A stretch of DNA of 26,759 bases from a virus: the IMG/VR virus record IMGVR_UViG_3300032731_001053, positions 1 through 26,759 of that record; one strand, 5' to 3'. This document shows, in pieces, positions 2,444 to 21,749 of this stretch; position 1 is the stretch's first letter, and each line of letters begins with the position of its first letter. Both the position numbers and the translations under genes were made by a program. A model generated the notes under the pieces. The model had not been told where the DNA came from. It saw only the letters and a program-made list of their open reading frames with translations, and made no database searches.

Positions 2444-2866
2444 CTACGGGGCCAGCTCGTCGAGCGCCCTGTCGATCCCCGCGCACCCGCCAGCGCCGAC
2501 GCCGACACCCGCCGCGAACGCCCGCCACTGCGCCCGCCTCGCCTCGATCAGCGCCGCCACCTTCGCGCGGTCGACCTCGCTGGCGTACGTCCTGTCATCG
2601 GCGATCTGAGCCTGCAGCCGTCCGATCTCGCTGAGCGTCCGATCGAACTCCCGATGGATGCGATTCCAGTCCTCATCGGTCAGAAGCCAGCCGTGGAACG
2701 GCGCCGAGTCCTCGCCGAACAGCTCCACCGGCCTGCCATCGCCGACCAATTCCTTGAGCTCCGGCGCGTCGTACGCGGTGACCGGCGACCACTGGAGATA
2801 GGACGTCAGCGGGGAGCCGCAGCCGGTCAGCAGCGCCAGCAGGACGACGAGACGGGTCAGTCCCAC
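2444..2866 (-). CDS. lipoprotein of the lysis cassette, possible outer spanin
   Basis: The 140-residue product begins with a short charged N-terminus, a hydrophobic stretch and the lipobox LTGC with Cys16, so it is predicted to be lipidated and exported. After a Pro-containing segment there is a long charged helix, about residues 66-118, with coiled-coil character, and a Gly/Ala-rich C-terminus. It starts at GTG 2866, overlapping the end of the upstream membrane-protein gene by 10 bases in another frame. This mirrors the overlapping inner- and outer-membrane spanin pairs of Gram-negative phages, which fuse the two membranes at lysis. It is longer than most outer spanins. The lipoprotein call is firm; the spanin role is inference from position. 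Confidence 0.7.
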   Translation of the reverse strand: MGLTRLVVLLALLTGCGSPLTSYLQWSPVTAYDAPELKELVGDGRPVELFGEDSAPFHGWLLTDEDWNRIHREFDRTLSEIGRLQAQIADDRTYASEVDRAKVAALIEARRAQWRAFAAGVGVGAGGCAGIDRALDELAP

Positions 2867-3210: not shown

Positions 3211-3725
3211 CACTCCCCCCCGTAGCCGCTGATGTCCTCGGCGCTGGGTAGCTCCTCGTCGAGCGTGTCCATCGTTCCGGTGACGGAGCCGCCGGAGGCC
3301 CACCGCTTCAAGCCGGCCTGGCCGCCGAGCATCCCCACGAGAGCCTCCGGGAGCAGCGCGGCGACGGCCGGGATCAGCTTCTCCACCGCGGCGTGGATCG
3401 GGATACACATCCCGCCGGCCACCCCGCCGAGCACCGGCCCCCAGGCCAGCCTCGTCCAGCCGGGCCACAAGGGCAGGAGCCCCACTGCGACGCCGAGCAG
3501 CCCGCAGGTCAGGCGCACGATCCACCGGTTGATGGCCGACCTGCGCACGGCCAGCCGTCGAGCCGCCCGCGCCCTGGCTCCCTCGTCCTCTACCTCCGGG
3601 GGCACGACCGGGGGCGGACGGAACAGGCGCAGCCCCTCCTTGAGGAGCCGGCCCGGGATGGAGTAGATCAGCACGCCGAGCACGCAGACCTCGACGGTCA
3701 GGAGCAGGTAGTCGGCGGGGGTCAC
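3210..3725 (-). CDS. multi-span membrane protein, holin candidate
   Basis: The 171-residue product has hydrophobic segments at about 6-23, 68-87 and 94-111, plus a further amphipathic or hydrophobic helix near 117-134. A basic, Pro-containing loop (about 35-67) and a polar C-terminus complete it. It starts at GTG 3725, overlapping the endolysin stop as GTGA; the open frame extending upstream to 4019 lies inside the endolysin gene and is a shadow. Its position directly after an endolysin and before the possible spanin pair makes a holin or lysis-timing protein the natural guess. The sequence does not match a holin family that I can name. Confidence 0.62.
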   Translation of the reverse strand: MTPADYLLLTVEVCVLGVLIYSIPGRLLKEGLRLFRPPPVVPPEVEDEGARARAARRLAVRRSAINRWIVRLTCGLLGVAVGLLPLWPGWTRLAWGPVLGGVAGGMCIPIHAAVEKLIPAVAALLPEALVGMLGGQAGLKRWASGGSVTGTMDTLDEELPSAEDISGYGGE

Positions 3726-4207
3726 GCTGCCATCCGCACGCCGAGGATCTGGCCCGCCGGGTAGATCTTGATGGAGACCGCGTTGCCCTGGTTGGCGCCG
3801 AGCACGATCGCGTTGCCGTGCGGTGTCCAGCCTAGGAAGATCGCGACGTGGCCTCTCCAGTCCGAGATGGAGACCCGCCAGAAGACGATGATGTTGCCGG
3901 GCGAGGCGTCCATGATGTCCACGGCCTTGCCCCACTTGAGCCAGCTCCGGGCCGCCTTGTTCCGCGTCCCCTGAAGCCCCGCGAGCAGCATGATCCAGTT
4001 GATGAAGCTGGAGCACCACGAGACCTCATCCGGCAGCTCCCCGTCCCCGTCGACGCCTCCCGCGTCGCAGGCGTCGTGCATCGTGACGATCTCGGGGTTG
4101 TGCTTGTCCCCGGGGACCTCCCGGAGGCCGATGTACTGGAGCGCGATCAGTGCGTAGACGGGCAGACCCGGCGCACGGCTGCGGACGAATGGGATGACGT
4201 TGGGCAT
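3722..4207 (-). CDS. endolysin, NlpC/P60-like cysteine peptidase
   Basis: The 161-residue product matches the phage cysteine peptidase type often seen in lysis cassettes (TIGR02594-like). Cys65 sits in VSWCSSFINW, His120 in WRGHVAIFLG and Asn139 in VLGANQGN, giving the order Cys-His-polar of the NlpC/P60 fold. The N-terminal part (ALIALQYIGLREVPG) fits the helix that precedes the catalytic Cys in this family. It would cut the peptide part of murein from the cytoplasmic side once released. There is no signal peptide, so release should depend on a holin. The ATG is at 4207. Membrane-protein genes lie on both sides. Confidence 0.78.
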   Translation of the reverse strand: MPNVIPFVRSRAPGLPVYALIALQYIGLREVPGDKHNPEIVTMHDACDAGGVDGDGELPDEVSWCSSFINWIMLLAGLQGTRNKAARSWLKWGKAVDIMDASPGNIIVFWRVSISDWRGHVAIFLGWTPHGNAIVLGANQGNAVSIKIYPAGQILGVRMAA

Positions 4208-4271: not shown

Positions 4272-4511
4272 TCACCTGCCGACGAGGCCACCTGGGGGCG
4301 ACGGGAGGATGGAGTCGGGGATCGCGTCGATCGCATCGAGGTCGAAGACGACCGAGCCGCAGGTGCCGGCGCAGTCGCAGCTGTGGCGGTGGGACCGGAA
4401 GAGGGCGACGAGGGAGGCGAGGCGCTGGTCTACGCGCCGGATCACGAAGTAGGCGGCGACTCCCCAGGCCAGGCCGGTCCCGACGGCTACCGCTGGTAGC
4501 AGCTCCCCCAT
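4272..4511 (-). CDS. small single-span membrane protein
   Basis: The 79-residue product has one membrane segment at about residues 5-24, a basic juxtamembrane stretch (RRVDQR), a small Cys cluster (Cys45, Cys47, Cys51) and an acidic, Pro-rich tail. It starts six bases after the stop of the upstream virion gene, with only a modest TAGG before the ATG. Size and position just before the endolysin would fit a holin, antiholin or other lysis accessory. The Cys cluster is unusual for those, and no family is recognised. About 60 bases with no recognisable signal separate it from the endolysin gene. Confidence 0.55.
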   Translation of the reverse strand: MGELLPAVAVGTGLAWGVAAYFVIRRVDQRLASLVALFRSHRHSCDCAGTCGSVVFDLDAIDAIPDSILPSPPGGLVGR

Positions 4512-4517
4512 CTGGAC

Positions 4518-5032
4518 CTACGTGTGCTCGTGGTACTGGAGGGCGAAGTTGCCCGAAGCGCCGCCGACCGACGAGGCGAGCTTCGCCCGGACGCGGGCGT
4601 TGGCCGGAATGACCGGGGTCTGGAGCTTCACGGACTGGAGCCCCCCGAAGCCGACCACCGAGTTGCGGTTGAGCCGACGCTTGCAGACCAGCGTGTCAGC
4701 GCCGCCCTGGAAGAGGTGAAGCTCGTAGACCGCGTCTGTGTCCAGCGCCTCGACGTTGAGGAAGTGGAGGCTGTAGGGGTTCGTGATCGTGCTCGCCGGG
4801 ACGACCTCGACGAAGGCGCCCAGCGTCCAGACGCCGCCGCTGTCTGCGACCGTGACGCCGCCGGCCAGGGTCGGGTAGCACATCCCCTCGCCGTGGAGGT
4901 GCGCGTTGATGCTCTCCAGCTCTGCGAAGGCGCTGTCCGCGGTCGGGGAGCCCGGCAAGGCGGTGTTGATCTCGACGAGGCAGCAGCCAGGGCGGCTGCC
5001 TCGTCGAGATCAGGTACGCAGTCCCAGCCCAT
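4518..5032 (-). CDS. small virion protein gene interrupted by a -1 frameshift
   Basis: The ATG at 5032 has an ideal GGAGG six bases upstream and overlaps the preceding TAA as TAATG, so it is the natural start. From there the frame reads MGWDCVPDLDEAAALAAA and then turns into Arg/Ser/Thr-rich nonsense that runs open to 4628. A normal-looking protein continues in the -1 frame from about 4979 (LVEINTALPGSPT) to the stop at 4518. It has a beta-rich body (YELHLFQGG, TPVIPANARVRAKLASS) typical of small phage structural proteins. The downstream frame has a TGA at 5010-5012 and only an unsupported TTG at 4958 as an internal start. The intended product is about 171 residues. The shift falls inside the perfect hairpin at 4968-5011. 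A sequence error, a mutation or recoding are all possible. Confidence 0.65.
4968..5011. repeat. perfect 17-bp inverted repeat with 10-base loop
   Basis: The arms GATCTCGACGAGGCAGC (4968-4984) and its exact reverse complement (4995-5011) flank a 10-base loop. The repeat lies near the start of the virion gene at 4518-5032 and covers the place where that gene's reading frame changes. Neither arm shows T-rich flanks as in a terminator. Confidence 0.9.
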
Positions 5033-5460
5033 TACCAGCCTCCGAACTCGATGACGATCTCAGTGAGGATGTCGTTGTCCGCTGCGGCGTCGACCTTGCT
5101 GCGGCCGTAGAGCGTCCCGCCGGAGCCCACGGAGCAGGAGACGCGGGTCTGGTCACGGACGTGGGCCGCCGCTGCCTCGGTGCTGATCGCGATGAGCCCT
5201 TGGTCGGTCGCCACCCCGGCGCCGGTGGCCGTGAAGCTGGCCGCGTTGCCGAGCTGGAGCGGGCCGACGGTCGTGCCCGTCGACGTCGCGACGACCAGGG
5301 TGGCCTTGTAGGAGATGACGTCGAAGTGGGGCGGCAGCTCGTCGACGCTCCACTCGCTCCCGTCCGCCGCGTCGGCCTCGGAGAAGGAGAGGGTCTGGCG
5401 GTAGCGACCCCCAAACCGGGTGACTGCGCCTCGGACGACTGCGCTCTGTAGGTAGGCCAT
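5032..5460 (-). CDS. small virion protein, function unknown
   Basis: The 142-residue product is beta-rich with many small residues, no Cys-based motif and no membrane segment, like small tail or capsid-surface proteins. A purine-rich AAGGGGA lies upstream of ATG 5460. The gene sits between the frameshifted virion gene, which it overlaps by one base as TAATG, and an inserted + strand lipoprotein gene that cuts it off from the upstream tail genes by about 440 bases. It therefore either depends on read-through antisense to the lipoprotein gene or has a promoter of its own in 5461-5545. No family is recognised; the virion role is inferred from position and composition. Confidence 0.65.
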   Translation of the reverse strand: MAYLQSAVVRGAVTRFGGRYRQTLSFSEADAADGSEWSVDELPPHFDVISYKATLVVATSTGTTVGPLQLGNAASFTATGAGVATDQGLIAISTEAAAAHVRDQTRVSCSVGSGGTLYGRSKVDAAADNDILTEIVIEFGGW

Positions 5461-5545
5461 GCTCGATCCCCTTCTTGTGGACTATCTGCCGGGTCTTGTG
5501 AAAGATCCAGGGCAGGTCACCGTTGGATCAATGGGAGGTTCCCCC
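5461..5545. promoter_or_regulatory. divergent intergenic region, probable promoter for the lipoprotein gene
   Basis: These 85 bases separate divergent starts at 5460 (-) and 5546 (+). They are visibly less G+C-rich (about 58 per cent by count) than their surroundings. They hold the strong GGGAGG at 5533-5538, seven bases before the lipoprotein ATG, and a purine-rich site for the - strand gene. A TTGTGG with a poor partner 17 bases on is the nearest thing to a sigma70-type promoter, which is not convincing. The need for a promoter is inferred from the isolated orientation of the lipoprotein gene. Confidence 0.35.
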
Positions 5546-5902
5546 ATGAGATACGCCACCGCCGCCCTCTTCCTCATCATCCTCGCCGCCTGCATCGACG
5601 CCGAGCCGCCCGTGGGCGCCGGAGACGACGACGACGCCGCACCCGTGAGCGTCGACCTCGGCTGCGTCAGCCTGACCCCGGACGCCGGAGAGGCCGACGG
5701 GCCGGTGGTCCTGCGCATCGACAACGACTGCGACGGGCCGATCAGCTGTGAGGTCTTCGGCGGCGGGATGCTGTGGTCCGCCTCCATCCCGAGCGGAGAG
5801 GCATGGACCGAGCCGCCGGCCGTGTGCGGGGACTTCTTCGGTGCCTGCACGTCGGTCACGTCGTCGGTCTCCTGGGAGTGGCTCCTGAGCTGCCCCAGCT
5901 AG
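5546..5902 (+). CDS. inserted lipoprotein gene (moron-like)
   Basis: The 118-residue product has a classical lipoprotein signal: a short Arg-containing N-terminus, a hydrophobic core and the lipobox LAAC with Cys16. A flexible Asp-rich linker (GAGDDDDAAP) follows, then a compact domain with six Cys (40, 62, 68, 94, 101, 116), which could form three disulfides in the periplasm or on the cell surface. The start at ATG 5546 is fixed by GGGAGG seven bases upstream; a longer frame from 5459 lacks a signal at its start. It is the only + strand gene inside the late cluster and ends overlapping the convergent neighbour through CTAG. This isolation is typical of a moron gene expressed from the prophage. 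Superinfection exclusion or host surface change is plausible but unproven. Confidence 0.78.
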   Translation: MRYATAALFLIILAACIDAEPPVGAGDDDDAAPVSVDLGCVSLTPDAGEADGPVVLRIDNDCDGPISCEVFGGGMLWSASIPSGEAWTEPPAVCGDFFGACTSVTSSVSWEWLLSCPS

Positions 5903-6488: not shown

Positions 6489-8327
6489 TCAGTCTCCTCG
6501 GTCCCCGGAGTCGGCGTGGACCTCGATGTGGACGGAGCGGAGGGTAACCTCCATCAGCTCCAGGTTGAGGGCCCTCCCTCGGGCCTGACCGCTCTCATCG
6601 TACACGCCCGGGACGTCGTACCGCACCACGTCACCGAGCAGCGTCCCCATCAGCCGGTAGTTGCCCTTGCCCGTCATGCCGCGCTGGCGCTGTGATCGCT
6701 CGTCGAGCGCGTAGACGGCGGAGTCCACGTACCCGTTCGCCCCGTGCATCAGCCAGAGCTCCCAGTCGACCTGCCCATCGCGGACCCCGTTGAAGCGAGC
6801 CGCGCCCTGCTCCACGGCGTCGTTGACCACGCTGTCGCGCTTGTCCTCGACCTTGATCTGGTGCTCGGGAGCCACCCGAGGGGCGGTGTAGAAGGCGGGG
6901 GAGGTCACGCGGATGCTGTTCGCGTAGAGGCCGGTCTCGTCGTCCATCATGGCGGCGGACGCGGGCCGCTTCACTCGGAGGTCGTACTCCCGGATCACGC
7001 GGTCAGGCGTCTGGCCCGGACGAGGGCCACGCCAGATCGGGTAGAGCCGCAGCTCCTCGGCGGCAGGATCCCAGCGCTGCACCAGGTCCGCGCCGACAGG
7101 CCGGAGCATCCCGACGAGCAGGTCCCTCATCTCGGGGCGGCTCTGGACTACCTCCGGCGGCAGAGCGCAGAGCCCGTAGATCCAGTCCGAGAAGAACCCC
7201 ATCGGCGCGGACGAGGCGAAGGCTGCGATGGCGCCTGTCCCGAAGACGTTGCCGAGCCCGAGGTAGAGGGGATCCTCGAAGAGAAGCTCCAAGATGTCCC
7301 AGACCCGACGGACGCTCACCCCCGTGTTGGTCCGGTAGTTGCCGAGGTTCACGGGATCCTGGTTGACCCCCATGTCCGGGCCGGAGACCCGACCCCAGCA
7401 GCGCAGGTCGACCAGCGGGTTGTTGTAGGCGTAGTTCCCGGAGGCCAGGCCGGTCGAGGTGAACTGGACCCCGGTCCCCAGCGGCCCGCGGGCGGGGTCG
7501 TCCTGGAGGTAGGTGTTGATGACCCCCCCCTCTCCCAGGACGTCGACCACCAGGCCGGTCGAGCTCTCGTAGAAGACCTCGTGGACGTAGGCGTTGGGCT
7601 GGCCGGTCACCAGGGCGTAGGTCGACGTCCCCCGGGTCCCGTAGGGGAGCAGCTCGATCCAGATGTAGTCCGTCTCGCCGGAGGCGTTGCCCCAGACCAG
7701 GCCGCGGTAGCCCGGGGAGAGGTGCGGGTGGAGGTGGTAGGTGTTCGGCCACCACATGTTGCCGCCGGGCGTGGACACGTCCGTCCAGCCCGCCTGGTCC
7801 GCATCCGAGAGCAGCGAGCCGGGGACCCGGAGCGCCGGGTCGAGGATCCCGCCGGTGGCGACGATGGAGAAGCCGCGGGGGGTCACGTTGTCCGGGTTCC
7901 GATCCCAGCGCCCGCCGAAGACCTGCTCCCAGCGGTCAGGGTGGTCGATGTCGAACAGCCACGCCTTGACCTCCTGGTTGGCCCACCAGCCGTCCTCCAC
8001 GTCCTTCCTCAGATCGTTGTCCCGGTCAGCTCGAGCCCCGGTCCCGTGGGGATCGCCCAGCTCGATCGTCAGAGTCAGGTCGCTCAATGCCTGGATCGTC
8101 TGGTCGAGGCCGCCCAGCGTCTCGTCGAACTTGGCGCCGGAGCAGCGTCCCTCCCAGAGGACCGCGCCGGCCGGGCCTGGTCCGGGCTCGCTGAGTACCA
8201 GCGCCGTGCCGACCACGGCCCGGGGCCCCACCAGCCGGAGGACCTGGAGCGATCCGTCAGCCGCTCTGTACTCGCCGCGGATGAGGTAGCCGAGCCGGAG
8301 GCCGGGGCGGAGGAAGTCCAGCGTCAT
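6489..8327 (-). CDS. tail hub or tail-tip protein
   Basis: The 612-residue product is the second gene after the tape measure, where long-tailed phages encode the baseplate hub or tail-associated protein. It has no membrane segments. It opens with a beta-rich region and contains aromatic-rich stretches (NMWWPNTYHLHPHL), a segment resembling hub modules with paired strands, and a C-terminal part (YRLMGTLLGDVVRYDVPG) that reads like a coordinate or surface-domain strand pattern of tail hubs. The start overlaps the distal tail gene stop as ATGA and has no strong ribosome site of its own, implying coupling. No peptidase or lysozyme motif is seen. The specific hub assignment rests mainly on position. 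Confidence 0.65.
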   Translation of the reverse strand: MTLDFLRPGLRLGYLIRGEYRAADGSLQVLRLVGPRAVVGTALVLSEPGPGPAGAVLWEGRCSGAKFDETLGGLDQTIQALSDLTLTIELGDPHGTGARADRDNDLRKDVEDGWWANQEVKAWLFDIDHPDRWEQVFGGRWDRNPDNVTPRGFSIVATGGILDPALRVPGSLLSDADQAGWTDVSTPGGNMWWPNTYHLHPHLSPGYRGLVWGNASGETDYIWIELLPYGTRGTSTYALVTGQPNAYVHEVFYESSTGLVVDVLGEGGVINTYLQDDPARGPLGTGVQFTSTGLASGNYAYNNPLVDLRCWGRVSGPDMGVNQDPVNLGNYRTNTGVSVRRVWDILELLFEDPLYLGLGNVFGTGAIAAFASSAPMGFFSDWIYGLCALPPEVVQSRPEMRDLLVGMLRPVGADLVQRWDPAAEELRLYPIWRGPRPGQTPDRVIREYDLRVKRPASAAMMDDETGLYANSIRVTSPAFYTAPRVAPEHQIKVEDKRDSVVNDAVEQGAARFNGVRDGQVDWELWLMHGANGYVDSAVYALDERSQRQRGMTGKGNYRLMGTLLGDVVRYDVPGVYDESGQARGRALNLELMEVTLRSVHIEVHADSGDRGD

Positions 8328-9510: not shown

Positions 9511-11604
9511 CTACGCCTCTCCGTAGCGCTGGCGGTCGTCGTGGGAGATGCCGCGCTCACGGGCGCGGATCCGGCGCTTCTCCGTGGCTTCGTACACCGG
9601 ATCCCCATCGACGTTGACCACGATCGGGATCGTGACCTCCCCGCCTCCGCTCGACTGGCGGCCGGACAGGATCTGGTTGGTCAGCTGGACGGTCCGCCCC
9701 AGGTCCTTCGTCGTGGCCGGGTCCGTCACCATCTCGTCGTCCCGAACGAATAGCGCGGAGTGCTGGCCGAAGCCCGCCTTGGAGAGGGCGCCCGGGAGCA
9801 TCCCTGCGTCCGCGATGCCGGCGATGGTGGTCCCGGCGATGCCTGCGATCTGCACCCCGCCCGTGAAGCCGGCGGCGATCATGGCGGCGATGCTCTGGGG
9901 GTAGCCCAGCTCGTTGGCCTTGGCGATGGCGACGAACATCGAGATCGTGGCCTGCGCGATGGCGACGATCTGCTGGGTCACGAAGGCGGCCTTGGCGGCC
10001 TTCTTGCCCTCCTCCGTCTGCTCCCCGTACAGGGCCGTGACCAGATCCCCGATCTGGCCGGCGAACGTCGACACGGAGCCCATCGTGGACATCGCGTAGC
10101 CGACCGCCTGCTGACCCTCCCGCTCCCGGATCCGGATCCGCTCCTCGCTCGCGGCCCGCTCGCCCTCGACGGCCTGCTGGTGGAGGGCCTCGATCTGACG
10201 GGAGGTGTCCGCCTCGATCGCGACGATCGCCTGAGCACTGGCCTCCCGGACGGAGAGCCGCTCCGCCTGGGACAGCATCTCGTTGGAAAGGAGGGCGTCC
10301 CGCTGTAGCTCGATGGCTGCAGTCCGCTGCGCCAGCTCGAAGGAGAGCTTGTCGACGCCGGAGAGGGAGGCGGCCTCCATCTGGACCATGACGGCGGCCA
10401 GGCTGTCCAGCGTGGTCTTGAGGTCCGCCGCCGCGCGCTCGCGGTCCTTGAGCACCTGGGCTGTGCCGTCGTCGGTCCCGCCACCGCCCACCGCAGAGGG
10501 CGCGCTCACCCGGCCGGAGGTCGCGGCCTCGGCCCGGAGCCGCGCCTGCTCGCGGAGGAGCTTCGCCTGCTTGGTCAGGATCCCCGCTTCGGCGCCGAAC
10601 TCGTTGGCCAGCGAGACGACGAGGGACTTCTGACGCTCGACTCGCTCCTCCCAGGTGGCCACCATCATGTCTCGGAAGGCTTCGGTCTCTCCCATCTCCG
10701 CCAACTCAGCGGCGGTCATCTGCTGCCAGGCGCGGAGGTTCCGCTCGAGCCCGCGCAGCCGGTTGTCCGCGTCGTTGATCTGGTCCTGCGCCGCCTCCGT
10801 GCGCTCCGCGTCCATCTGCCGCTGGGTCTTCCCGAGGACCAGGAGCGCCTCGGTCGCGATCGCTGCCCCGACGGCGATGTCCGCCATCAGCGGGATCCAG
10901 GACATCGCGAACGTCTGGACCATCCCGTCGCCGGCCGTCTTGAGCCGGAGGATCGCGTCGTTGAAGTCCTCGGCGGCCTGGGTGTCGTCCTCGGACCAGA
11001 CCACCCCGAGGGCTACGGACTCCTGGTGGAGGCGCGACATCGCGTCGGCGCCCTGGTTGAGCAGCGGGATCATCTGGGTCCCGGACCGGCCCATGAGGTC
11101 CTGGGCGAGCCCCGCCTTGACCGCGCCGTTCTCCATCAGCGAGAAGGTGTCCGCGACGTCGGCCATCACGGCCTCGGTCGAGCGGAGGTTGCCTTCGGCG
11201 TCCCGCAGCTCGATCCCCATCACCCCGAGGGCATCGTTGACCGGCCCGGTGCCCTTCGTCGCGGCGTCCAGCATCCCCTTCTGGAGCTTCCGGATCCCGC
11301 CGGCCAGGGACTCGACCGAGGTCCCGGCCAGGCCCGCCGCCAGCTTCAAGCCGGAGAGCTTCTCCGTGCTGATCCCGGTGATCTCAGAGAGCTTCGCGAT
11401 GGCGTCGGCAGCATCGATCGCCTTGCCGGTGAGGTGCGCGAGGCCGACTACTAGCGCGGCCAGAGCGGCGCCCATCGCCGCGGTGCGGAGGGTGGTCCGG
11501 GCGGAGGCAGCGCCTACCTCGTCGACACCACCGCCGAGCCCCTTGAGCTCGCCCTTCGCCTTGCTGGCGTCGGCGTTGATCAGGAGGGTCATCGCGTTGG
11601 ACAT
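9511..11604 (-). CDS. tape measure protein
   Basis: The 697-residue product has the usual layout: an N-terminal Gly-containing region, an early hydrophobic helix (AALAALVVGLAHL), a long helical middle rich in Ala, Glu, Gln and Arg (about residues 270-500), and two hydrophobic stretches near residues 545-610 (QQIVAIAQATISMFVAIAK, GIAGTTIAGIADAGML). A Gly-rich end follows. Tape measures set tail length, fill the tube and help DNA entry. At roughly 0.15 nm per residue, the size would give a tail of about 100 nm, which is an estimate. The ATG at 11604 has GAGGGG upstream. It lies downstream of the frameshifted chaperones and upstream of the tail tip genes, exactly as expected. About 110 bases without a convincing gene precede it. 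Confidence 0.88.
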   Translation of the reverse strand: MSNAMTLLINADASKAKGELKGLGGGVDEVGAASARTTLRTAAMGAALAALVVGLAHLTGKAIDAADAIAKLSEITGISTEKLSGLKLAAGLAGTSVESLAGGIRKLQKGMLDAATKGTGPVNDALGVMGIELRDAEGNLRSTEAVMADVADTFSLMENGAVKAGLAQDLMGRSGTQMIPLLNQGADAMSRLHQESVALGVVWSEDDTQAAEDFNDAILRLKTAGDGMVQTFAMSWIPLMADIAVGAAIATEALLVLGKTQRQMDAERTEAAQDQINDADNRLRGLERNLRAWQQMTAAELAEMGETEAFRDMMVATWEERVERQKSLVVSLANEFGAEAGILTKQAKLLREQARLRAEAATSGRVSAPSAVGGGGTDDGTAQVLKDRERAAADLKTTLDSLAAVMVQMEAASLSGVDKLSFELAQRTAAIELQRDALLSNEMLSQAERLSVREASAQAIVAIEADTSRQIEALHQQAVEGERAASEERIRIREREGQQAVGYAMSTMGSVSTFAGQIGDLVTALYGEQTEEGKKAAKAAFVTQQIVAIAQATISMFVAIAKANELGYPQSIAAMIAAGFTGGVQIAGIAGTTIAGIADAGMLPGALSKAGFGQHSALFVRDDEMVTDPATTKDLGRTVQLTNQILSGRQSSGGGEVTIPIVVNVDGDPVYEATEKRRIRARERGISHDDRQRYGEA

Positions 11605-11716: not shown

Positions 11717-12160
11717 TCAGGCGCCGGAGTCCGCGTCTCGCTTCGCCTCCTCCGCGTACCACAGCGACTGGCGGCGCGACGTGGCGGTCAGGACCCGGAA
11801 GGCGTCCGTCATCCAGGCCGGCTGGTCGAGGAGTCCGCCGGGGAAGGGGTAGCCGCTCTCGCCGTAGTAGGTCCAGTCCGTCCACGCCTGGATGGTAGCA
11901 GCGACCATCGGCTCGCTCAGAATCTCCGCCGGGCAGCCGCGGACGGAGTGGTCGGCCCGCAGTTCGCCTGGCGGCATCCGGGCCGGGAGCAGGGCGGGGC
12001 TCTCCCACTCGTCGTGCTGTGGATGGTCCGGCTTGCAGCGGCCCTGGCAGCCGGCGGCCAGCTTGCACCCGGCCCAGCCTTCGATGTCGTGGAGCGCCTC
12101 CTCCTCTTCCTCCGTCTCGGGGCCGGGGAAGGAGAGGTAGTGCAGAGCCGCTCTCAGCTT
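11717..12160 (-). CDS. tail assembly chaperone T extension, made by -1 frameshift
   Basis: This 147-codon stretch reads in the -1 frame relative to gene G and overlaps its end. It begins KLRAALHYLSFPGP after the slip, has a run of five Glu, several Cys and Trp residues and a charged helical end (RRQSLWYAEEAKRDAD). No start codon with a ribosome site lies near its beginning; the only ATG in frame is deep inside G at 12286. Expression is therefore expected as a G-T fusion of about 302 residues, as in lambda and many long-tailed phages, where G and G-T coat the tape measure during tail assembly. The position immediately before the tape measure gene supports this strongly. Confidence 0.78.
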   Translation of the reverse strand, partial: KLRAALHYLSFPGPETEEEEEALHDIEGWAGCKLAAGCQGRCKPDHPQHDEWESPALLPARMPPGELRADHSVRGCPAEILSEPMVAATIQAWTDWTYYGESGYPFPGGLLDQPAWMTDAFRVLTATSRRQSLWYAEEAKRDADSGA

Positions 12161-12624
12161 TTTGCTTCGCCCCCGGGGAGGGTCCCGCGGCGCTTCAGCT
12201 CGCGCTCCAGCTCCAGCATGAGGCCGTTCTGCGCCATCACGAAGCCCTTGAGGCCGACCTTCGGATCGAGCCCGGAGTGGTCCCACGCCTCCTCCGGGAT
12301 CTCCAGGCCGACGACCTCGACCAGGTGGTCCGCGATGAAGTCGCGGCGGACCTGCAGCGCTCGGTCCGACTCCTTCTGCATCGCCTCCAGGTCGGTCTTC
12401 GCGGCCCGCTCGGCGGCCTCGTCCGTCAGCCCCTCGGCGCTCTCCTTCACGGAGCGGGCGAGCTGCTCTCGGGCGAGCTGCGCGCGGTCCATCGTGAGCC
12501 GGTCGAGGGTGAGCATCGAGGCCCTGGAGGGGGACCGGAGCTGGACATGGAAGGGGTGGGGGGTCGCGCGGTTGTCACCCCACAAGGGGACATACTTGCG
12601 GATCAGCAGATCGAGGACGTTCAC
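12154..12624 (-). CDS. tail assembly chaperone G
   Basis: The 156-residue product is largely helical and charged in its second half (RAQLAREQLARSVKESAEG, and later LMLELERELKRRG), as in phage tail assembly chaperones. The start is GTG 12624 with GGAG six bases upstream. The end carries an A5 run followed by TGA, which allows a -1 shift into the T frame. It lies between the tail tube and the tape measure genes, the canonical place. Its role would be to bind the tape measure protein and tail tube subunits before assembly; it is normally absent from finished virions. Confidence 0.8.
   Translation of the reverse strand: MNVLDLLIRKYVPLWGDNRATPHPFHVQLRSPSRASMLTLDRLTMDRAQLAREQLARSVKESAEGLTDEAAERAAKTDLEAMQKESDRALQVRRDFIADHLVEVVGLEIPEEAWDHSGLDPKVGLKGFVMAQNGLMLELERELKRRGTLPGGEAKS
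12159..12163 (-). promoter_or_regulatory. probable -1 slippery site (A5) of the G/G-T genes
   Basis: On the - strand the G gene reads GCA AAA AGC TGA. The run of five A lets a Lys-tRNA on AAA slip back by one and keep full pairing, after which reading continues AAG CTG in the T frame. The G stop follows one codon later. The site is not a perfect two-tRNA heptamer, because the following AGC would not re-pair well, so slippage by the P-site tRNA is the simplest model. Confidence 0.65.
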
Positions 12625-20489: not shown

Positions 20490-21053
20490 CTACGCCTGCG
20501 GCTCGTGGGGGTTGAAGTCGGCGTTGAGGTACGCCGTCATGTGGCCGGGGCGGGCCAGCACGGTGTCCTCGGCCTGGGTCCGCAGCTCGAGCGTCGCCTG
20601 GTCAAGGCCCTCGGCCTTGACCAGGCGGGCGACCTCGGTCTCGACGGCCGCCACGACCTTGGCCGCGGTCAGGGCGTCGTCGCCGGTCTCGCCGTGGCCC
20701 CGGAGGGTCCCCAGCTCCTCGGTCTTGCCGGCCTCGAAGAGGTCCTCGACGAAGGCGACGGCCTTGTCCCAGCCGCTCACCTTCGTCTCGCCGTCCAGGA
20801 TGCGCAGCAGGCCGTCCTTCTTGGCCGGCTTGACCCGGCCCTCCTTCACGAACCGGGCCACCAGGGAGTCCCGCTGGGCGGAGAGCAGGGTGTCCCGCTC
20901 GGCCTTGAGCGTCACGATCGCCTGCTCCCGGACGCTCAGGGTCTCCGTGGAGGTCTTGAGCTCGTCCTGGATCGCCTCGACGGCGACGGACAGCTCCTGA
21001 TCGGAAGCCTCGGCTCGGAGCTTGAGGCGGCTGGTCACGAGGGGGAGGGTCAT
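20490..21053 (-). CDS. nested in-frame scaffold protein (Mu gpZ-like)
   Basis: An ATG at 21053, residue 233 of the protease-scaffold frame, is preceded by GAGGAG (21063-21068) with nine bases between, as good as most gene starts in this window. The product would be 187 residues. It begins MTLPLVTSRLKLRAEASD, continues as the charged helical scaffold, and lacks the protease domain. In Mu and lambda an internal start makes the scaffold in excess over the protease, and the boundary between protease and helix lies at the same place here. The internal start is seen in the sequence; its use is inference. Confidence 0.65.
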   Translation of the reverse strand: MTLPLVTSRLKLRAEASDQELSVAVEAIQDELKTSTETLSVREQAIVTLKAERDTLLSAQRDSLVARFVKEGRVKPAKKDGLLRILDGETKVSGWDKAVAFVEDLFEAGKTEELGTLRGHGETGDDALTAAKVVAAVETEVARLVKAEGLDQATLELRTQAEDTVLARPGHMTAYLNADFNPHEPQA

Positions 21054-21749
21054 CGGGGTCTGCTCCTCGGCTGGGCGCTGCTGCCCGTGACGCGACAGTA
21101 GCATGACGGTCCTTGCGCTCTGCAAGGACTCCGCGGGGGGGACAGGAAGATCGGGGAGCCGGAGCCCCTGGATCATCGGGTCGTTGCAGAAGGTCGCGCC
21201 CTCTACCAACCAGCCGCCGAGGGGCTTCTCGTCGACCTTCGAGAGCGCGAAGTCGGGGTGGACCAACTCCACCGAGGTGCCCGCGAAGTCTCCAGACGCC
21301 CGGGTCTCAACCCCGGCTGCCGTCCACTCGTAGAGGGCTTCGAGGATCGGGGTGCCTGCGGGGAGCTGCTGACCGGGCCGATCCCCGCCGGGCCACTCCT
21401 TGACCCGGAGGTCGACGATCCGAGCCCGTGCCTTGGTCTCCTCGGCGGCGCAGGAGCCGAAGGCGAGCGCGTGGTTGATGTCCACCTTCGGCCCGCCGCC
21501 GGGCCAGTAGCCCTCGGCCTGCGCCTTGCGGAAGACCGCCGGCATCCCGCGGATGTCCTCCTCCGTGAAGGTCACGGAGCGCTGGCTCTTGCCGCCGGGC
21601 TTCCGGGCCACGTAGTGGTGGAAGGTCCCCGGGTAGAGCTGCTCGACCCAGGAGCGGCCGGCGGACCACTCCGCCTCCGCCTGGGGGTCGGCCGCAACCC
21701 TCTCCGTCTCCCGGAGGGCGACCCAGGGGCTCCACAGCTCGGTCGTCAT
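20490..21749 (-). CDS. prohead protease with C-terminal scaffold, Mu gpI-like
   Basis: The 419-residue product matches the Mu gpI type. KVDINHALAF near residues 88-97 corresponds to the conserved D-x-x-H region. EALYEWTAAGVETRASGDFAG and the later SVELVHPDF and LVEGATFCNDPMIQGL fit the family's W-T-x-x-G, S-P-x-F and L-x-x-N-P segments (residues 138-196). The C-terminal half is a charged, coiled helix (about 245-320) typical of scaffolds, ending in an acidic region. It would process the prohead interior and then itself. The ATG at 21749 overlaps the portal-MuF stop as ATGA. An internal in-frame start at 21053 probably makes a separate scaffold. Confidence 0.82.
   Translation of the reverse strand: MTTELWSPWVALRETERVAADPQAEAEWSAGRSWVEQLYPGTFHHYVARKPGGKSQRSVTFTEEDIRGMPAVFRKAQAEGYWPGGGPKVDINHALAFGSCAAEETKARARIVDLRVKEWPGGDRPGQQLPAGTPILEALYEWTAAGVETRASGDFAGTSVELVHPDFALSKVDEKPLGGWLVEGATFCNDPMIQGLRLPDLPVPPAESLQSARTVMLLSRHGQQRPAEEQTPMTLPLVTSRLKLRAEASDQELSVAVEAIQDELKTSTETLSVREQAIVTLKAERDTLLSAQRDSLVARFVKEGRVKPAKKDGLLRILDGETKVSGWDKAVAFVEDLFEAGKTEELGTLRGHGETGDDALTAAKVVAAVETEVARLVKAEGLDQATLELRTQAEDTVLARPGHMTAYLNADFNPHEPQA
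20595..20627. repeat. perfect 15-bp inverted repeat with 3-base loop
   Basis: The arms CGCCTGGTCAAGGCC and its exact reverse complement flank the loop CTC. It lies inside the scaffold part of the protease-scaffold gene, where it codes for ARLVKAEGLDQAT without disturbing the frame. No T tract follows, so it is not a standard terminator. Confidence 0.92.

What the first reader, a model, noticed from the sequence alone, without database searches (positions are those of the whole stretch)
4518..5032. Virion gene broken by a -1 shift inside a perfect hairpin
The best start in this stretch (ATG 5032, GGAGG, TAATG overlap) leads into nonsense, while the clearly protein-like continuation lies in the -1 frame and has no supported start. 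The shift must fall within about 5009-4979, which is inside the perfect 17-bp inverted repeat at 4968-5011. Adding one base, for instance one more C in the CC at 4979-4980, would restore a smooth DLDEAAALAA-LVEINTALPG. Three readings are possible: a sequencing or assembly error caused by the hairpin; a real mutation in which fold-back template switching turned an imperfect palindrome into a perfect one and shifted the frame (quasipalindrome mutagenesis); or recoding or ribosome bypass at the hairpin. No canonical slippery heptamer precedes the stem, which counts against ordinary programmed shifting.
Basis: partly seen in the sequence, partly recalled or inferred. Interest (0 to 1): 0.68.

Follow-up and report, generated by a model that had tools for sequence, protein, structure and literature searches.

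The report
Phage virion gene broken at hairpin
In this uncultured phage a surface-protein gene loses its reading frame exactly where the DNA holds the longest perfect hairpin of the whole record, most likely because a polymerase copied one arm of the hairpin from the other; the process is well known and a sequencing or assembly error cannot be excluded.

Summary
On the minus strand, ATG 5032 (GGAGG, TAATG overlap) opens a frame that becomes nonsense, and the real protein lies in the -1 frame (4518-4976). The inverted repeat is 18 bp (4967-4984/4995-5012, loop 10), the longest in the 26,759-base record. Shuffles reach 13 bp at most, and the break falls inside it. Homologues, found only with purpose-built patterns, show that a gene is broken. 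The three closest distinct ones read open from an ATG exactly 13 codons before the Asn that aligns with AAC 4967; one has the same GGAGG-TAATG junction. None has the hairpin. In the window that distance is 65 nt, not a multiple of three. So TTG 4958 is not the ancestral start.

Programmed frameshifting is unlikely: no slippery heptamer, no conserved hairpin, and the zero frame runs on to 4628. Best explanation: one template-switch (quasipalindrome) event created or perfected the hairpin and shifted the frame. Which arm was the donor is unresolved. Whether it happened in the phage or during sample preparation or sequencing cannot be told without reads. The protein is predicted to be a beta-sandwich of fibre/lectin type. 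Known process, new instance, modest interest.

The parts
4518..4976 (-). protein-like -1 frame of the broken virion gene (VEINTALPG... to TAG); beta-sandwich protein, 152 residues readable
   Evidence: 47% identity over 149 aa to L029; 29 homologous loci; model pLDDT 87; codon usage
4628..5032 (-). ATG frame: the first codons, up to about 4982, are the presumed authentic N-terminus, the rest out-of-frame nonsense down to 4628
5030..5043 (-). GGAGG ribosome-binding site (5043-5039) and TAATG stop/start overlap (5034-5030)
   Evidence: sequence; same arrangement before the homologue in L029, about 11529-11546
4967..5012 (.). 18-bp perfect inverted repeat, arms 4967-4984 and 4995-5012, 10-nt loop; the frame break lies inside it
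4977..5009 (-). interval that holds the frame break; codon and residue choice weakly favour its 3' part as transcribed (about 4985-4977)
   Evidence: TGA at 5012-5010 closes the -1 frame upstream; codon sums; Cys is 0.6% of residues
5032..5460 (-). upstream gene, 142 aa, coupled by TAATG; unknown virion-module protein
4272..4511 (-). downstream gene, 79 aa, one membrane segment by eye; followed by a CHAP/NlpC-like hydrolase at 3722-4207

Best explanation
The gene starts at ATG 5032 and encodes a small beta-sandwich virion protein with a short N-terminal helix. Its frame was lost by one template-switch (quasipalindrome) event. A polymerase stalled in a short inverted repeat already present, of which TGATCTCGAC / GTCGAGATCA is the likely seed. 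It folded back and copied one arm from the other, then returned to its template. That left a perfect 18-bp hairpin and a length change that is not a multiple of three. Shown: the break, its position inside the hairpin, the hairpin's exceptional length, and intact homologues without it. Inferred: that hairpin and break are one event, and that it happened in the phage rather than in the tube. Not resolved: which arm was the template. The product is now either absent or a protein lacking the N-terminal extension, if the poorly supported TTG 4958 is used.
For: Longest inverted repeat of the record, beyond all shuffles, exactly at the break. Coding signal of the -1 frame reaches to about 4990, beyond TTG 4958. 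The closest distinct homologues, L029/L030, L031/L032 and L036/L037, have 13 codons from ATG to the conserved Asn, against 65 nt in the window. L029 has the same GGAGG...TAATG junction. No inverted repeat with arms of 8 bp or more around the start in 14 homologous loci, apart from one 9-bp repeat well inside the L040 gene. No further stop or frame break in the rest of the gene, so the lesion looks recent (inference). The literature describes this outcome: QP mutations make the repeat perfect or more perfect (PMC7202029), first noted in yeast CYC1 and phage T4 rIIB, and single template switches create perfect hairpins (PMC8794818).
Against: No ancestor or near relative was found, so the pre-mutation sequence is unknown and templating cannot be read off directly. 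Codon scores do not single out the arm boundaries as the mutated segment. Scores against the homologues' N-termini are also ambiguous. A second perfect 15-bp repeat inside ORF 20490-21749 breaks nothing, so long perfect repeats can exist here without a frame change. A library or sequencing artefact would look the same.
Confidence: 0.52

Rival explanations
1. Sequence artefact: the gene is intact in the phage and the change was introduced by polymerase fold-back during library amplification, by sequencing through a stable GC-rich hairpin, or by assembly of a thinly covered stretch.
For: The record is an uncultured IMG/VR contig with no reads available. DNA hairpin of -25 kcal/mol. Another family member has a 118-bp frame-breaking deletion, assembly-like or real, against a contig whose compared flanks are 100% identical (L044 versus L039), so broken copies do occur in this collection.
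Against: An 18-bp repeat is shorter than the k-mers normally used, so graph collapse is unlikely (general knowledge). A random one-base error would not by itself be expected to make the repeat perfect. No other frame break was noticed in the 26.7 kb.
Confidence: 0.33
2. Recoding: the ribosome shifts -1, or bypasses bases, at the hairpin, and the full protein is made.
For: Strong stem directly at the break; well supported start upstream and coding frame downstream.
Against: No X XXY YYZ heptamer in any phase between 5032 and 4940. The zero frame does not stop near the stem but runs to 4628. Homologues have neither hairpin nor break at this place. The same genome has an ordinary-looking -1 site with A5 and an immediate stop before the tape-measure gene.
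Confidence: 0.06
3. No break: translation starts at TTG 4958 and everything upstream is untranslated or a short leader.
For: Some remote homologues have N-termini of about this length (L035, L041). TTG 4958 would keep the whole beta-sandwich and the helix at model residues 16-28.
Against: Codons between about 4990 and 4959 carry full coding signal (11 codons at the 51st percentile of in-frame windows, no off-frame window as high). Residues N-T-A upstream of the TTG align with N-T-A of L031. No ribosome-binding site before the TTG, and the stretch before it lies beside or inside the stem. The ATG 5032 frame would be translated across it.
Confidence: 0.08

Closest known systems
Quasipalindrome-associated template-switch mutations (phage T4 rIIB, yeast CYC1, E. 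coli thyA; lacZ reporters, PMC7202029)
   Same: Frameshift located in an inverted repeat that ends up perfect; 18 bp is also the size of the lacZ reporter palindrome
   Different: Seen here only as an end state in one environmental sequence; the earlier, imperfect state is not known
Template-switch mutations that create perfect hairpins in one step (PMC8794818)
   Same: A perfect stem not present in relatives
   Different: Here in a protein gene, destroying the frame, rather than in RNA genes
Programmed -1 frameshift of tail-assembly chaperone genes
   Same: Same direction of shift, structural gene of a tailed phage
   Different: No slippery site, no conservation, no early stop; this phage's own chaperone site (about 12154-12165) looks quite different
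Translational bypassing, phage T4 gene 60 type
   Same: Hairpin between two reading frames
   Different: No matched take-off and landing codons with a stop after take-off were recognised by eye; homologues read straight through
C1q/TNF/carbohydrate-module-like beta-sandwich tips of phage fibres
   Same: Predicted fold with short N-terminal helix; best PDB matches include phage tail-fibre, spike and portal-tail entries and a lectin domain
   Different: TM-scores of only about 0.3-0.46, no sequence family in Pfam and no consistent one in PHROGs

Membership tests
Quasipalindrome template-switch mutation | Mutated site lies in an inverted repeat that is perfect after the event | tested here: met
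   18 of 18 pairs, break inside it
Quasipalindrome template-switch mutation | The repeat was less perfect before the event | tested here: inconclusive
   Homologues at up to 47% identity lack it, but none is close enough to show the prior state
Quasipalindrome template-switch mutation | All changed bases are explained by copying the other arm | tested here: inconclusive
   Codon and homologue scores do not fix the changed segment or the donor arm
Programmed -1 ribosomal frameshift | Slippery heptamer upstream of a stem | tested here: not met
   none found
Programmed -1 ribosomal frameshift | Conserved in relatives | tested here: not met
   homologous genes are single open frames without this hairpin
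Translational bypass | Full-length product from the broken frame | not testable with these tools
   needs protein data
Sequencing or assembly artefact | Reads disagree with the consensus | not testable with these tools
   no reads held

The most novel reading that the evidence does not exclude
The hairpin is a recurrent fold-back hotspot that switches a receptor-binding-like surface protein on and off in the phage population, in effect phase variation by template switching.
Probability: 0.05. Interest if true: 0.65.

Novelty: new member of a known kind. Interest (0 to 1): 0.27.

Why it matters
If real, it is a clean natural example in a phage virion gene of one fold-back event that both makes a perfect hairpin and breaks a frame, a mutation class described early in phage T4 but seldom pointed out in environmental genomes. 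It also warns that a hairpin at a frame break in a metagenomic phage is better read as mutation or error than as recoding. By-product: a previously unassigned family of small beta-sandwich virion proteins with members in more than 25 environmental contigs.

Tried and rejected
Single-protein searches with the target, its upstream neighbour, ORF 6489-8327, the capsid and terminase found no related contigs. An eight-terminase alignment was too divergent to search with. A terminase DNA pattern gave 14 contigs, all only distantly related. The apparent hit in Achromobacter phages lies on the wrong strand of the annotated gene and is chance. Genome contigs, plasmids and isolated phages gave no relative of the gene. 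Direction of copying: codon usage slightly favours the 3' arm as sense-like and the 5' arm as its antisense; the loop and the implausible Cys-Cys of the -1 frame favour the opposite, so it is left open. The idea that the window exceeds its relatives only by an inserted arm fits the length class but is not favoured by codon scores. Terminator, promoter, Rfam and tRNA scans found nothing at the site.

Full report
What is in the sequence. The window is a whole IMG/VR virus record of 26,759 bases, linear, uncultured. The virion genes, terminase and capsid among them, and the lysis-type hydrolase run on the minus strand. At 5034-5030 the stop of ORF 5032-5460 overlaps ATG 5032 (TAATG), with GGAGG at 5043-5039. 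That start leads into MGWDCVPDLDEAAALAA and then Ser/Arg-rich nonsense to 4628. The protein-like frame (VEINTALPGSPTADSAF... to TAG 4518) is the -1 frame; it is closed upstream by TGA 5012-5010 and offers only TTG 4958 as a common start at its head. The inverted repeat is 18 bp with a 10-nt loop (4967-4984/4995-5012). It is the longest in the record, whereas the longest arm in 20 shuffled versions was 13 bp. It folds very strongly as RNA and as DNA.

Is a gene really broken? Three lines of evidence say yes. First, codon usage: third positions are 94% G+C over 18 genes. The -1 frame carries full coding signal back to about 4990; its 11 codons 4991-4959 score at the median of true coding windows and above every off-frame window. 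So coding sequence extends upstream of TTG 4958 and into the hairpin. The codons after ATG 5032 score weakly as coding (2nd percentile of in-frame windows) but above 99.97% of off-frame ones.

Second, homologues. Ordinary searches failed. A purpose-made DNA pattern for a motif near the C-terminus found two contigs, one of them 47% identical over 149 residues (L029). An alignment of these found 29 loci in viral contigs, L028 and the L029 contig (again, as L030) among them. The three closest distinct ones with full N-termini (L029/L030, L031/L032, L036/L037) read open from an ATG that lies exactly 13 codons before the Asn aligned with AAC 4967; L036 could also start three codons earlier at a GTG. 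In the window the same distance is 65 nt, not a multiple of three. N-T-A upstream of TTG 4958 is shared with L031.

Third, the junction: L029 has GGAGG and a TAATG overlap in front of its gene, as the window has. ATG 5032 is therefore very probably the ancestral start, and the frame is broken between it and the body of the gene. More remote members have different N-termini (L033-L035, L038-L043), some as short as a start at TTG 4958 would give. Such a shortened product is conceivable now, but it has no ribosome-binding site.

Recoding is unlikely. There is no slippery heptamer. The zero frame does not stop near the stem. The homologues examined have no hairpin there and a single open frame. 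The phage has an ordinary-looking -1 site elsewhere: GCA AAA AGC TGA at about 12165-12154, before the tape-measure gene, with the -1 frame continuing to 11717.

Mechanism. The best explanation is a single fold-back template switch. Published work gives the defining outcome: a quasipalindrome becomes a perfect or more perfect repeat (PMC7202029), and a perfect hairpin can arise in one event (PMC8794818). It accounts for both oddities at once, the exceptional repeat and the break inside it. Which arm was copied is open: 5'-arm codons look like the antisense of the 3' arm, but the -1 frame upstream of 4980 would need Cys-Cys in a proteome with 0.6% Cys, and scoring of possible segments was not decisive. 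No restored gene is written out here.

Real mutation or artefact? Not decidable here. An 18-bp repeat should not trouble an assembler, and a simple read error would not be expected to perfect a repeat (general knowledge). Fold-back copying can also happen in the tube. A related case shows that frame-breaking changes do occur in this collection: L044 lacks 118 bp of the gene relative to L039 while the flanks compared (486 and 614 bases) are 100% identical. I put a real template-switch mutation at about 0.52 and an artefact at about 0.33.

What the gene is. The 152 readable residues, aligned with 12 homologues, give a confident model (pLDDT 87): an N-terminal helix and a beta-sandwich. Structure matches are at fold level only (TM about 0.3-0.46 in the PDB) and point to phage fibres and spikes, carbohydrate-binding modules, a lectin domain and viral jelly-roll proteins. 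A virion surface or fibre-tip role is inference. No Pfam family describes it, and of 13 members one matches a PHROG of unknown function, weakly.

Noticed in passing
window 12154-12165 (-), ORFs 12154-12624 and 11717-12286: Likely tail-assembly chaperone -1 frameshift: GCA AAA AGC TGA just before the tape-measure ORF 9511-11604, with the -1 frame open to 11717.
   Followed up: partly
window 5459-5902 (+): A plus-strand ORF with a lipoprotein signal (MRYATAALFLIILAAC) sits head-on between minus-strand virion genes: a candidate accessory lipoprotein (moron).
   Followed up: no
window 20595-20627: A second perfect inverted repeat (15 bp, loop 3), also beyond the shuffles, lies inside ORF 20490-21749 without breaking it.
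   Followed up: partly
L044 about 10186, against L039 about 2428-2546: A homologue of the gene carries a 118-bp frame-breaking deletion relative to a contig whose compared flanks are 100% identical; the 144 bases before the junction are also identical to L028.
   Followed up: partly
window 2444-2866 (-): Small ORF with a lipobox (LLALLTGCGS) near the lysis genes; possibly a spanin-like lipoprotein.
   Followed up: no
L030, L031, L033-L043 and others: A family of about 160-residue beta-sandwich phage proteins (motifs YPTLAxGV, WTLGxFVEVVPASTIT, PANxRIxAKLAS, YHxY) with no Pfam model, no consistent PHROG match and variable N-termini.
   Followed up: partly
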